A DNA stretch of 54,782 nucleotides from a virus: IMG/VR virus record IMGVR_UViG_3300034073_004114, positions 1-54,782 of that record, one strand, 5' to 3'. Position 1 is the first letter of the stretch; each line of letters begins with the position of its first letter. A program made the translations under genes and the position numbers. This document shows positions 13,666 through 45,390 of the stretch, piece by piece. The notes beneath the pieces were generated by a model. That model made no database searches, was not told where the DNA came from, and worked only from the letters and a program-made list of their open reading frames with translations.

Positions 13666-13911
13666 ATGCAGATAAAAATACCTTTTATATTAGATCCAAT
13701 AACTAAAAAGCCGTCTGTATCGTTAAGTAATTTGATGATATCGACGGTTTTTTTATTGGTAGCAGCATCACTCGATCTTTCGGGTAAAGTGGAAGATACG
13801 AGTATTGCATTAGAATATTTTGGCGTTTCTTCTGCCTTGTACTTCTCAAGAAGAATTAGTATAAATGGACGTGAATTTACGTCAGAAAGTGATAAAAATA
13901 ATAATGTTTAA
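13666..13911 (+). CDS. Holin-like small membrane protein
   Basis: The 81-residue protein has two hydrophobic segments (about 22-38 and 46-62) separated by a short polar turn, and polar ends. This matches small phage membrane proteins found in lysis regions. It sits just upstream of the membrane-anchored ClpP-like protease and the spanin-like pair, which supports a lysis role. A role is inferred from layout and hydropathy. Confidence 0.5.
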   Translation: MQIKIPFILDPITKKPSVSLSNLMISTVFLLVAASLDLSGKVEDTSIALEYFGVSSALYFSRRISINGREFTSESDKNNNV

Positions 13912-14725
13912 AGCAGTAGTAAAAAATGTTTTTTTCCTATCTATTGGAGTTTCTCTCGGGTACGCAGCATACTACACCGTAGGGGAAATTTACACTGGAG
14001 TTAAAACCAAGGTACAAAACATTAACGTAAGTAGTAGTTTACTACCTGAAGTAGATGATGCTGATTCAAAAGAACCTAAAACGGCTCTTCAGACAAGTAA
14101 TGTTAAAATGGTGGATTTAACCGATGAAAAGGTAATTCACATTACTGGTCCTATTGGAAGAAACGCTTTCAATGTTTCTGATGCAATAAAACTTGCAGCG
14201 CGTTCGGGCGATCCCATTTGGGTTCTAATTGATAGTCCTGGTGGTAGTGTAATTGCTGGAGCGCAGATTATCAGTGCAATCGAGTCAGCTGGTGTTGAAG
14301 TAAACACAGTTTGTCTTTCCCTTTGCGCCTCCATGGGTGCAATCATTCACCAGCACGGAACAAAACGATATATGGTTGATAGATCCTTCTTGATGTTTCA
14401 CGAGGCATCTGGTGGTGTATCGGGAACTATGCCTCAGATGTTATCACAACTTAAATCTATGAATCGATACATAAACAAAATGATTGCAAAAATTGCAACT
14501 CGAGCTGGGATGTCGTTTAAAGATTTAAGTTCTAAATTGGCGGCTGAACTATGGATTGACGCCGAGGATTCTTTGGTCTCCCATTTTAGTGATGGGACAA
14601 TTAACGTTCTTTTTGATCCTTCACGTGTTCTAAATTCAACACAAGGATTCGAGGAACGCGTTACGCCTTATTTACCCTCACCAAATAGAGGTGAGAGACA
14701 TAAGATTTTGGATATGCAACTATGA
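13904..14725 (+). CDS. Membrane-anchored ClpP-like serine protease
   Basis: The 273-residue protein (from MFKAVV) begins with a hydrophobic helix at about residues 8-26. The remainder is a ClpP/SppA-type fold: I-D-S-P-G-G-S-V (about 107-114), a nucleophile elbow C-A-S-M-G-A (Ser near 142), F-H-E-A-S-G-G (catalytic His near 165) and W-I-D-A-E-D (Asp near 215). The layout suggests an N-in anchor with the catalytic domain outside the inner membrane. ClpP-like proteins in phages are often prohead proteases, but this one is in the early arm, beside holin- and spanin-like genes, far from the capsid genes. A further in-frame ATG lies at 13865. Confidence 0.72.
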   Translation: MFKAVVKNVFFLSIGVSLGYAAYYTVGEIYTGVKTKVQNINVSSSLLPEVDDADSKEPKTALQTSNVKMVDLTDEKVIHITGPIGRNAFNVSDAIKLAARSGDPIWVLIDSPGGSVIAGAQIISAIESAGVEVNTVCLSLCASMGAIIHQHGTKRYMVDRSFLMFHEASGGVSGTMPQMLSQLKSMNRYINKMIAKIATRAGMSFKDLSSKLAAELWIDAEDSLVSHFSDGTINVLFDPSRVLNSTQGFEERVTPYLPSPNRGERHKILDMQL

Positions 14726-43025: not shown

Positions 43026-44084
43026 TTATGGACTTGCTACAACATCATCGGAATTTACAATATTGACGATGACGGTATTACGTCCAGGAGCCTGACAGAA
43101 GAGAGCTTGGTCGGTATAGAGGCGAAGCTCGTAACCAGCACTATTCTCAAGATCACGGAAGAACTCTTCCCCTTGACCAGGACGCTTGAATGAAATGTCG
43201 GAAGAACCAACACGCATCCAATCCTCGAGGCTTAGGAGGAAAGCATGACCTTCTTTAACATAAAGAGATGATTCGATCTCGATTTCTCCACCTTGGGAAT
43301 GATAGAGGAGTGAGCGAGCGCCGTTCTCCATCTTTGCGGAGGTGTAGCTACCGTCGTAGTCACGAAGAGCAGCTTGATCCGAAAGCATATCCTGCCATGC
43401 ACGTGGGTTAACAAGAGCAAGAAGTTTTCCTTCTTGACCCTTTTCAACCGCACGAGTGGAAGCCTGTCCTAACTTAGTGAAAGAAAGGGGGGCTCCATCA
43501 GCATCATATTCGTTACCCTTGAAAAGGTTATAAGCACTAGCATCGATATTGAAAAGAGTGCCAGTATTGGTGAGGATTTTATGAACTCCAGGGAATTCAT
43601 TTCCATAAGCACCACGATGATAAATATCATCTCCATCATCACATGTCACAGGACCATCGACTGTGATAGTTCTTGCTGCCATATCGACTTTAGTGACTTT
43701 AACCGAAGCCTTTAGCGTAGATCCAAGACGAATTTCAATAGGCATCCCTTCGGCACCTGCCCAAATTCCAGGAGCCCATTCTTGTGCCTTAATTGGTATA
43801 ACAGTGGCAGCGGTTAAAGCACCATCCACTTTAGCATAACCCATTTGACCATAAAGCATTTCAATCTCAAGCTTTTTGGACATAGAACGAAGCATGTTTG
43901 CAACGAGATACTTGGTTGCATCCATGAAAGCCTTTTGTCCACCAAGAGCAGCACGAGATGCAGCTACGTATCCGAGAACGGAACGTAGAACTGCTGGATA
44001 ACCTTTAACCTGTGCGTCCTTGATCTGACCAGAAACTGGAGTCTGGAGATTAAACGCGTCATCATCAGAACTTGCGAATGTAAC
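43026..44084 (-). CDS. Major capsid protein, exon 2 (C-terminal 352 residues)
   Basis: This is the second exon of the capsid gene; exon 1 is 45235-45390, giving 404 residues when joined. The exon opens V-T-F-A-S-S-D-D-D-A-F-N, and a later internal Met at 43925 is not the true start. The mid section (A-V-L-R-S-V-L-G-Y, M-L-R-S-M-S-K-K-L-E-I-E) and the C-terminus are typical of HK97-fold podovirus capsid proteins. Order (scaffold, then this gene, then a terminator) supports the call. The exon frame is restored only if the intron is spliced. Confidence 0.8.
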   Translation of the reverse strand, partial: VTFASSDDDAFNLQTPVSGQIKDAQVKGYPAVLRSVLGYVAASRAALGGQKAFMDATKYLVANMLRSMSKKLEIEMLYGQMGYAKVDGALTAATVIPIKAQEWAPGIWAGAEGMPIEIRLGSTLKASVKVTKVDMAARTITVDGPVTCDDGDDIYHRGAYGNEFPGVHKILTNTGTLFNIDASAYNLFKGNEYDADGAPLSFTKLGQASTRAVEKGQEGKLLALVNPRAWQDMLSDQAALRDYDGSYTSAKMENGARSLLYHSQGGEIEIESSLYVKEGHAFLLSLEDWMRVGSSDISFKRPGQGEEFFRDLENSAGYELRLYTDQALFCQAPGRNTVIVNIVNSDDVVASP

Positions 44085-45234
44085 CTAGTGTTATCGTAAG
44101 GGCTCTTTATCCCCTACTTCTTATAGTTTCCTATAAGGTCAGACTATCTTTTCAATCCCTGTAATTGAGATTGTTGGTGACTCGTGGGATTATTTTATTC
44201 CGCTAAAGCGGGTTCAAATCCTAGTCGTTGCGCGTGTTCAGAGGTATTACCCTTAGAACTTCCGCTCTGATTAGCATGGAGAATTAATTCTCTGTAGCTT
44301 TCCAAGTTTTTTCACCAATTTATACACGGCATTACTGTTTACCGTGTTCTAGTCCTAAAATAATCATAATGTTACGCCTGTATTGGCTACAGGGGAAGAA
44401 CCTCTTCGGATTCTTCTCTGTGGCTTTATTTATTCCCACAGTTCAGACTATTGCATCTGTTTTTTTCAAAACAGCCAAATCACTTAGTCGTTCACGGTCC
44501 AATGAGTATTTCACTACTAATTCCTCTGTTATTAAACTAATATCAAAAGTGTGCCAATTTGAATTATGCGCCTTTTCAAAATGGCAAGTAGTACATACAG
44601 TAATCAAATTCTTTTCATCAAGAAAAGCTTCTGGCTTAATCCAGTAGGGTAGAATATGATGGGCATGCAAATGTCCACCCTTTTTCTTACAATAAAAACA
44701 AGTAAACTTGTCCCTATTAAACACAAAACTACGGAGAGGTTTAAATTCCGAAATTTTATAATCTCTAGGTCTTCTAACATATTTACCGTTTTTGTAGTTG
44801 GGGTTTCTATCCTTTGTTCTTTTTTTAGCATTATCTGATAATTTGTTTTTAACTTCTTGAGAATGTTTCTTCCCAAAAAAGGGATTATTTTCACCAGTTC
44901 TTTGTTTTGCTAAATTAGAAAGATTTTCTTTTTGAAGAGGGGTTCTCTCGTATTTATTGAATTGATTTTTTCTGTATCTAATTTCAGCTGCTACGTTTTG
45001 AGTCCTAAGCACTCCTGCTTTTTTTAAAAGCCGCTTCACAGCAGTAGCACTCACGCCATGTTTATGTGCAACCTTATAAGAACTATCTAATTCTAGATAA
45101 TCACTAATTAAGATTTCAATTTTAATGTCGTCTGCTACTTTTTTCATTGGTTCCGCCTCGTTGTCCTAAAATTAGACTAATATTTTTAGGGTTTCCGAGT
45201 CAATCAGATTCGGTTTAAACAGCCCCTTATATTA
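44085..45234 (-). other. Group I intron in the major capsid gene
   Basis: The 1150-nt insert interrupts the capsid gene; an in-frame TAA lies right at its 5' end. The exon 1 end CAGCCT (+ strand 45235-45240) pairs with GGGCTG (+ 45220-45225) to form P1 with the U-G splice pair. The core has GACTA and TAGTC (P7, + 44222-44226 with 44142-44146), a CCGC/GCGG hairpin (+ 44200-44211), and a 7-bp stem with a GAAA tetraloop (+ 44120-44137). The 3' end is G at 44085, joining in frame. The non-coding stretch 44085-44442 is ribozyme core. Confidence 0.85.
44443..45147 (-). CDS. Intron-encoded HNH homing endonuclease (NUMOD3)
   Basis: The 234-residue protein has an N-terminal helix-turn-helix-like region. 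NUMOD3-type DNA-binding motifs follow (G-E-N-N-P-F-F-G-K-K-H-S, about residues 90-101, and R-N-P-N-Y). The HNH nuclease domain has C-F-Y-C, H-A-H-H-I-L-P-Y, then N-L-I-T-V-C-T-T-C-H (about 153-195). It lies wholly within the group I intron and on the same strand, so it should cut intron-less capsid alleles and spread the intron. The stop codon overlaps a structural segment of the ribozyme. Confidence 0.9.
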   Translation of the reverse strand: MKKVADDIKIEILISDYLELDSSYKVAHKHGVSATAVKRLLKKAGVLRTQNVAAEIRYRKNQFNKYERTPLQKENLSNLAKQRTGENNPFFGKKHSQEVKNKLSDNAKKRTKDRNPNYKNGKYVRRPRDYKISEFKPLRSFVFNRDKFTCFYCKKKGGHLHAHHILPYWIKPEAFLDEKNLITVCTTCHFEKAHNSNWHTFDISLITEELVVKYSLDRERLSDLAVLKKTDAIV

Positions 45235-45390
45235 AGGCTGATGGTAAAGGTTACCAGGTGTCTTATCCTTACTCTGAAATTTGATTTTATTTAGAACCTT
45301 AACTCCATCTGGAATAAGTTCTTGGAGCTTGTCTCCATAAGTTTCTTTGAACATTCCGTTCAAACTAACAACAGTATTTGCAGTTGACAT
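45235..45390 (-). CDS. Major capsid protein, exon 1 (N-terminal 52 residues)
   Basis: The exon encodes M-S-T-A-N-T-V-V-S-L-N-G-M-F-K-E-T-Y-G-D and ends K-T-P-G-N-L-Y-H-Q-P at the intron, 52 codons with the last codon complete. Without splicing, a TAA would stop it immediately. The N-terminus with T-Y-G-D-K-L-Q-E-L-I-P matches phage major capsid protein starts. A ribosome binding site (AAAGG) lies 11 nt upstream. Confidence 0.8.

What the first reader, a model, noticed from the sequence alone, without database searches (positions are those of the whole stretch)
44085..45234. Group I intron with a homing endonuclease interrupts the major capsid gene, and its splice sites can be read
The capsid N-terminal exon (52 codons, 45235-45390) and C-terminal exon (43026-44084) are separated by 1150 nt. 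P1 is visible as exon CAGCCT paired with internal GGGCTG, with the U-G splice pair. P7-like GACTA/TAGTC and a 7-bp stem with a GAAA tetraloop follow. The 3' splice site after G at 44085 restores the frame exactly. An HNH/NUMOD3 gene lies inside. Introns in capsid genes are far less common than in polymerase or lysin genes, so annotators are likely to miss exon 1 and call a truncated capsid protein.
Basis: partly seen in the sequence, partly recalled or inferred. Interest (0 to 1): 0.75.

Follow-up and report, generated by a model that had tools for sequence, protein, structure and literature searches.

The report
Two tandem introns split capsid gene
A phage's main shell-protein gene is interrupted not by one but by two neighbouring RNA introns that appear able to splice themselves out, separated by a 24-letter exon, and this short stretch of the gene proves to be a crowded landing zone where related phages carry introns at fourteen or more different positions.

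Summary
The insert is real at the stated outer coordinates (44085-45234, minus strand), but it is two group I introns, not one. Intron A (45234-44365, 870 nt) carries the HNH/NUMOD3 homing endonuclease gene. Intron B (44340-44085, 256 nt, no ORF) is the Rfam RF00028 hit (50.3 bits). Between them lies a 24-nt exon (44364-44341) encoding IILGLEHG. Intron A's core, including the part inside the ORF, is supported by a 234-nt ORF-less relative at the same site and by covariation (32 pairs, 100% of cells paired, 14 pairs with compensatory changes; slid controls 1-3).

Wider picture: of 73 distinct informative genes of this capsid family, 23 carry one to four introns, 44 in all, at 14 sites within codons 18-86. 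Exons between them are as short as 13 nt, and HNH, GIY-YIG and LAGLIDADG endonucleases all occur. Intron B is 98.4% identical to its copy in a phage whose capsid gene is only 74% identical, so it moved recently. Group I introns in capsid genes are known; the density, tiny exons and fast turnover are a notable variant. Splicing itself was not tested.

The parts
45235..45390 (-). Capsid exon 1, codons 1-52 (MSTAN...GNLYHQP); last six bases CAGCCT are the 5' strand of P1 of intron A
44365..45234 (-). Group I intron A, 870 nt, compact core without P7.1/P7.2, HEG in P6; begins with an in-frame TAA, ends with G at 44365
   Evidence: spliced alignment; ORF-less homologue L019 2992-3225 (234 nt, core 201/226 identical); covariation; identical 870-nt copy in L001
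45220..45225 (-). Intron A P1 3' strand GGGCTG (internal guide)
45207..45213 (-). Intron A P3 5' strand CCGAATC, pairs with GATTTGG 44481-44475
   Evidence: 4 of 7 pairs with compensatory change
45157..45199 (-). Intron A P4 (CTCG 45199-45196 / CGAG 45160-45157) and P5 (CCTAAAA 45190-45184 / TTTTAGG 45171-45165)
44443..45147 (-). HNH homing endonuclease gene, 234 aa, NUMOD3 (residues 81-104) and HNH (150-192); its 3' end encodes P7, P3', P8 and P7' of the ribozyme
   Evidence: Pfam (HNH 1.2e-5, NUMOD3 6.2e-8), PHROG; 65% identical to the HEG of L089 at site 56
44446..44489 (-). Intron A P7 (GACTA 44489-44485 / TAGTC 44450-44446), P3 3' strand (44481-44475) and P8 with GAAA loop (44474-44457)
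44378..44441 (-). Intron A P9 (44441-44436/44423-44418), P9.1 (44416-44411/44400-44395) and P9.2 (44392-44388/44382-44378) hairpins
   Evidence: sequence
44341..44364 (-). 24-nt exon ATTATTTTAGGACTAGAACACGGT = IILGLEHG, capsid codons 53-60
   Evidence: uninterrupted relatives; spliced alignment; P10 UUAU:AUAA with intron A guide
44085..44340 (-). Group I intron B, 256 nt, P7.1/P7.2 present (subgroup IA type), no ORF; ends with G at 44085
   Evidence: Rfam RF00028 50.3 bits, E 7.1e-10; L019 copy 252/256 identical, L001 copy 256/256; L011 holds the same intron with a GIY-YIG HEG
44325..44335 (-). Intron B guide: GTAAT (44335-44331, P10 with exon GUUAC 44084-44080) and GCCGTG (44330-44325, P1 with CACGGU 44346-44341)
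44120..44318 (-). Intron B core: P3 44318-44312/44180-44174, P7 44226-44222/44146-44142, P7.1 44221-44217/44191-44187, P7.2 44211-44208/44203-44200, P8 44173-44167/44159-44153, P9 44137-44131/44126-44120
43026..44084 (-).
   Evidence: phrog_14242 major head protein; Foldseek match of the family model to phage capsids

Best explanation
The major capsid gene holds two independent, differently classed group I introns 24 nt apart. Each ribozyme folds, defines its own 5' site with a P1 ending in U.G and its own 3' site with a terminal G and a short P10, and leaves; the three exons (156, 24 and 1059 nt) join in frame to a 412-aa capsid protein that contains the conserved HQPIILGLEHGVTFAS segment. 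Intron A encodes an HNH homing endonuclease that should nick or cut intron-less capsid alleles nearby and drive copying of intron A. Intron B has most likely lost the GIY-YIG endonuclease that its homologue still carries, and was exchanged recently with another phage lineage. The pair is one occupancy state of a shared landing zone (codons 18-86) in which introns are gained and lost repeatedly. Shown by sequence: both cores, both splice-site sets, the 24-nt exon, relatives with and without each intron, horizontal movement of intron B. Inferred: splicing in the cell, endonuclease activity, order of arrival.
For: Rfam hit for B only. Uninterrupted relatives contain VILGLEHG. Spliced alignment chose T|...G| boundaries 45235/45234, 44365/44364, 44341/44340, 44085/44084. 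L001, a separate assembly, has identical introns. L019 holds ORF-less intron A at the same site; the structure scores 100% paired cells, 14 pairs with changes on both sides against 1-3 when slid and a mean of 8.5 when shuffled. P1 and P10 of both introns. Intron B 98.4% identical to L019 while exon 3 is 74.3% identical. HEG domains. L019 and L024 share 91.4% exon identity yet have disjoint intron sets, 42/52/60 against 56/71. Intron presence needs at least 11 changes on the capsid tree.
Against: No RNA data. Rfam does not report intron A, expected because a 640-nt ORF interrupts P6, but it leaves A resting on comparison and a hand-built structure. The alignment was not fitted to the structure, yet I chose the pairs with the sequences in view. 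The guide of intron A can also pair, more weakly (3 against 4 bp), with exon 3, so some exon skipping is possible.
Confidence: 0.93

Rival explanations
1. A single 1150-nt group I intron splices exon 1 directly to 44084.
For: Outer P1 and terminal G are real and the frame is kept.
Against: The protein would lack eight residues that 50 uninterrupted relatives encode; the insert holds two complete sets of P3/P7/P8; each half occurs without the other in relatives (L011 has B only; L098 has a site-52 intron without B).
Confidence: 0.02
2. Both introns splice, but the 24-nt exon is also skipped in part of the transcripts, giving a second capsid protein eight residues shorter, as exon skipping was reported for phage Twort.
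For: Skipping is in frame; the intron A guide can pair 3 bp with exon 3. [quoted passage not shown] the paper itself was not held).
Against: The skipped segment is nearly invariant, so the short form is unlikely to assemble; both correct P10 helices are longer.
Confidence: 0.15
3. Intron B is spliced but intron A is a decayed element, so the capsid gene is broken in this phage.
For: Intron A is not found by Rfam.
Against: All core helices of A are intact and conserved with an ORF-less relative and with introns at sites 50 and 56; the HEG is open with intact HNH and NUMOD3 motifs; L001 shows the same allele independently.
Confidence: 0.03
4. Assembly chimera or sequencing artefact joined unrelated intron fragments to the capsid gene.
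For: The record is a metagenome assembly.
Against: Identical arrangement in L001, a separate assembly record; sites 52 and 60 occupied together in L019 too.
Confidence: 0.01

Closest known systems
Group I intron of mycobacteriophage LittleE capsid gene (PMC3706429)
   Same: Group I-type intron with an HNH gene in a phage major capsid gene; U before and G at the end; splicing shown there by RT-PCR
   Different: One intron of about 0.8 kb, HNH gene on the opposite strand, no tandem intron and no tiny exon
Multi-intron MCP genes of crAss-like Zeta/Delta phages (PMC7886860)
   Same: Several group I introns in one capsid gene (five fragments in OLRF01000054)
   Different: Different phage group; introns were located by endonuclease domains; no exon as short as 13-24 nt was reported in the passages read
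Staphylococcus phage Twort introns (Landthaler and Shub; cited in PMC6669764 and PMC3984707)
   Same: Several group I introns in one phage gene, exon skipping possible
   Different: Other genes; the Twort paper was not held, so exon lengths were not compared
PhiPA3 gp210 intron-encoded HNH endonuclease (PMC11620839)
   Same: HNH enzyme in a group I intron of a conserved phage gene, presumed to cut intron-less alleles of co-infecting phages
   Different: RNA polymerase gene, interference shown experimentally; here activity is only inferred
Didymium-type twin-ribozyme introns and nested twintrons (from memory)
   Same: Two ribozymes and an HEG close together
   Different: Here the two ribozymes lie side by side with coding sequence between them and each has its own P1 and U.G pair

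Membership tests
Group I intron (intron B) | Match to the Rfam group I model above gathering score | tested here: met
   50.3 bits against 50, full model 1-253
Group I intron (intron B) | P1 with U.G at the 5' site, terminal G, P10 | tested here: met
Group I intron subgroup IA (intron B) | P7.1 and P7.2 hairpins between P7 and P3' | tested here: met
   GGATT/AATCC and CCGC/GCGG at 44221-44187, by inspection; no subgroup model was available
Group I intron (intron A) | Core helices P3, P4, P5, P6, P7, P8 supported by covariation | tested here: met
   224 of 224 cells paired, 14 pairs with compensatory change
Group I intron (intron A) | Rfam group I model match | tested here: not met
   the model cannot span a 640-nt ORF in P6; not counted as exclusion because the core was shown by covariation
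Group I intron (both) | GTP-initiated self-splicing | not testable with these tools
   needs in vitro transcription
HNH homing endonuclease of NUMOD type | HNH and NUMOD motifs | tested here: met
   PF01844 1.2e-5 and PF07460 6.2e-8, both above cut-off
HNH homing endonuclease of NUMOD type | Cuts intron-less alleles at the insertion site | not testable with these tools
   activity assay needed
Twintron (nested introns) | One intron inserted inside another | tested here: not met
   Coding sequence lies between A and B, and intron-less relatives encode it
Phage major capsid protein, HK97 type | Similarity to known head proteins | tested here: met
   phrog_14242 5.4e-12; Foldseek to phage VP1 capsid 3.1e-5 on a model of low mean confidence (58)

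The most novel reading that the evidence does not exclude
The first fifth of this capsid gene is an arena of competing homing elements: HNH, GIY-YIG and LAGLIDADG introns of several lineages target overlapping recognition sites, an intron at one site protects the allele against endonucleases aimed at neighbouring sites, and introns shift to sites a few bases away. Multi-intron genes would then be multiply immunised alleles, limited only by the roughly 13 nt that an exon needs to serve both a P10 and a P1.
Probability: 0.3. Interest if true: 0.75.

Novelty: new variant of a known kind. Interest (0 to 1): 0.58.

Why it matters
Group I introns in phage genes, even capsid genes, are known. What I did not find described in the papers searched is such density: 14 sites in about 205 nt of one structural gene, genes with up to four introns, exons down to 13 nt, three endonuclease families, and closely related capsid genes (91% identical exons) with disjoint intron sets. 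It gives a natural series for testing how small an exon group I ribozymes can handle, whether a resident intron blocks homing at adjacent sites, and whether introns move by a few bases. It also matters for annotation: gene callers lose the capsid N-terminus and cannot see 13-30 nt exons.

Tried and rejected
Single intron (rejected by relatives). Nested twintron and twin-ribozyme (rejected: coding exon between, each core with its own P1). Alternative 3' ends of intron A: splicing after AGG, 12 nt upstream, gives an in-frame 36-nt exon (RNIMIILGLEHG), four residues too long against relatives; after GCG gives a stop. Rfam with an E-value threshold on 44373-45390 gave only chance matches. Conservation alone as cause of the clustering: other stretches of the gene (codons 112-131, 160-170, 330) are as conserved or more and have no introns; none of 20,000 random draws from equally conserved positions clustered as tightly. 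In-frame stop at intron starts: present within four codons in 29 of 31 distinct introns, but individually weak against shuffles, and an already proposed feature of group I introns in coding genes (PMC3984707). AlphaFold of the capsid family: N-terminal part of low confidence, so the hotspot could not be placed on the fold. One search with wrong frame and one paper not held. Possible C-terminal intron in L098 near codon 394 left open because its ends do not fit.

Full report
WHAT WAS CLAIMED. One 1150-nt group I intron with an HNH gene splits the major capsid gene on the minus strand, spliced from 45235 to 44084.

WHAT IS THERE. The outer coordinates are right. The Rfam group I model reaches its gathering score in the window, but only at 44372-44120. 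Reading the insert, a second and earlier set of group I elements is visible: P1 CAGCCU/GGGCUG, P3 CCGAAUC/GAUUUGG, P4 CUCG/CGAG, P5 CCUAAAA/UUUUAGG, P7 GACUA/UAGUC, P8 CUGUUUU-GAAA-AAAACAG. Between the two sets lies ATTATTTTAGGACTAGAACACGGT, which reads IILGLEHG and ends in CACGGU, the 5' strand of a second P1 (GCCGUG, 44330-44325). I predicted a three-exon gene from this before any relatives were fetched (note written).

TEST WITH RELATIVES. The spliced 412-aa protein finds 41 IMG/VR loci. Uninterrupted relatives read GNLYHQPVILGLEHGVTFA, so the predicted eight residues are present and the one-intron junction Q-P-V-T-F is wrong. A dynamic-programming spliced alignment with a small preference for T before and G at the end of introns returned intron A 45234-44365 and intron B 44340-44085, both phase 0. 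Its query was the window's own predicted spliced protein, so for the window it is a check of boundaries, and for the relatives an independent mapping. L001, a separate assembly, has identical introns (870/870 and 256/256), which argues against an artefact.

INTRON A. L019 holds at the same site a 234-nt version without an ORF. Its sequence joins the two halves of the window's core where the ORF sits, in P6, and the core is 201/226 identical. On an alignment of the window core with six compact introns from sites 50, 52 and 56 (A3), the named structure pairs in all 224 cells; 14 of 32 pairs show changes on both sides, against 1-3 when partners are slid and a mean of 8.5 when shuffled. The HEG (45147-44443) has NUMOD3 and HNH. 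Its 3' part encodes P7, P3', P8 and P7', and a GAGG (45159-45156) eight bases before its ATG lies across P4/P6. From this I infer that translating the HEG and folding the ribozyme compete on the same RNA.

INTRON B. P7.1 and P7.2 make it a subgroup IA type, unlike A. L011 carries the same intron with a full GIY-YIG HEG (847 nt; 46/46 and 188/193 identical to the two parts of B); the window's B keeps the reading frame of the HEG's end (NQSGSSKG..SEHAQRLGFEPALAE), so B most likely lost its HEG. B is 252/256 identical to the L019 copy, while exon 3 of the two phages is 74.3% identical and the first 60 nt after the intron only 44/60. This is recent horizontal movement. Parts of B resemble introns in Staphylococcus and Streptococcus phages at about 70-95% over shorter stretches.

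SPLICE SITES. Each intron has a 6-bp P1 closing with U.G (chance 2-3% each) and a P10: UUAU:AUAA for A with the 24-nt exon, GUUAC:GUAAU for B with exon 3. Direct joining of exon 1 to exon 3 by A would have only UUA:UAA. Skipping cannot be excluded, but it removes nearly invariant residues.

THE WIDER PATTERN. Three further viral scans and one genome scan brought the set to 76 distinct contigs plus the window; the last scans added only one new contig. Fifty are uninterrupted over codons 15-100, 22 contigs and the window are interrupted, and four are truncated; some are near-duplicates. Sites (codon/phase): 18/1, 27/0, 42/0, 46/0, 48/2, 50/0, 52/0, 56/0, 60/0, 61/2, 71/1, 73/2, 79/0, 86/2. Here 61/2 means after the second base of codon 61. 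Up to four introns occur in one gene (L098). Exons between them are 13 (L098), 14 and 18 (L028), 18 (L089), 24 (window, L001, L019), 29 (L033) and 30 nt (L019, L013-L015). HEGs are HNH at 52 and 56, GIY-YIG at 50, 60, 61, 71, 73 and 79, LAGLIDADG at 42 and 46 (Pfam; the HEGs of L089, L098 and L103 by similarity). Related HEGs sit at neighbouring sites: HNH of site 52 and 56 are 65% identical, GIY-YIG of 60 and 61 69%. The window HNH's residues 10-51 are 64% identical to the C-terminus of the site-46 LAGLIDADG enzyme, probably a shared DNA-binding module. No two introns in one gene are closer than 13 nt although many sites are 2-12 nt apart; this fits an exon having to supply both P10 to the intron before it and P1 to the intron after it, but numbers are small. 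On a tree of the downstream part of the protein, intron presence needs at least 11 changes, and it is more clustered than shuffled labels. L019 and L024, 91.4% identical in exon sequence, have disjoint intron sets. Sequence conservation does not explain the clustering.

MECHANISM, SHOWN AND INFERRED. Shown by sequence: two cores, two sets of splice sites, the 24-nt exon, gain/loss and horizontal transfer. Inferred: splicing in the cell, endonuclease cutting, protection by occupancy, competition between HEG translation and folding.

COMPARISON. Introns in phage capsid genes are known (PMC3706429, PMC7886860), as are genomes crowded with group I introns (PMC12363816) and endonucleases that harm co-infecting phages (PMC11620839). 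I judge this a new variant of a known kind: ordinary parts in an unusually dense and fast-changing arrangement.

Noticed in passing
L098 3175-4999: Four group I introns in one capsid gene (sites 48/2, 52/0, 73/2, 86/2) with a 13-nt exon TTTCCACCAGCCT; a possible fifth near codon 394 (5928-about 6907) does not show clean ends.
   Followed up: partly
L028 2059-4008: Three introns at 50, 56 and 61/2 with exons of 18 and 14 nt; the site-50 intron holds a GIY-YIG-like reading frame that is no longer open.
   Followed up: partly
L033 1724-4000: Introns at sites 18/1 (225 nt), 27/0 (1030 nt) and 79/0 (837 nt); the first two are the only ones upstream of codon 42.
   Followed up: partly
window 45147-44995; L013 HEG residues 249-290: A 42-residue helix-turn-helix-like module is shared (64% identity) between the HNH enzyme of site 52 and the LAGLIDADG enzyme of site 46, which suggests swapping of DNA-binding modules between endonuclease families that target the same gene.
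   Followed up: no
L016 3135-3351: Another likely group I intron (RF00028, 37.3 bits, E 6.2e-6) upstream of the capsid gene; host gene not identified.
   Followed up: no
L103 3811-4094: Site-46 intron whose best 3' end falls after A instead of G; either the boundary is off or the end is unusual.
   Followed up: no
L107 2488-3302: A contig binned with a betaproteobacterial genome carries this capsid gene with a site-56 intron similar to L089's; only weak host evidence, since bins are often contaminated.
   Followed up: no
window 13865-14725: ClpP-like protein (head maturation protease, phrog_94, E 4.6e-31) encoded on the + strand, far from the capsid gene on the - strand.
   Followed up: no
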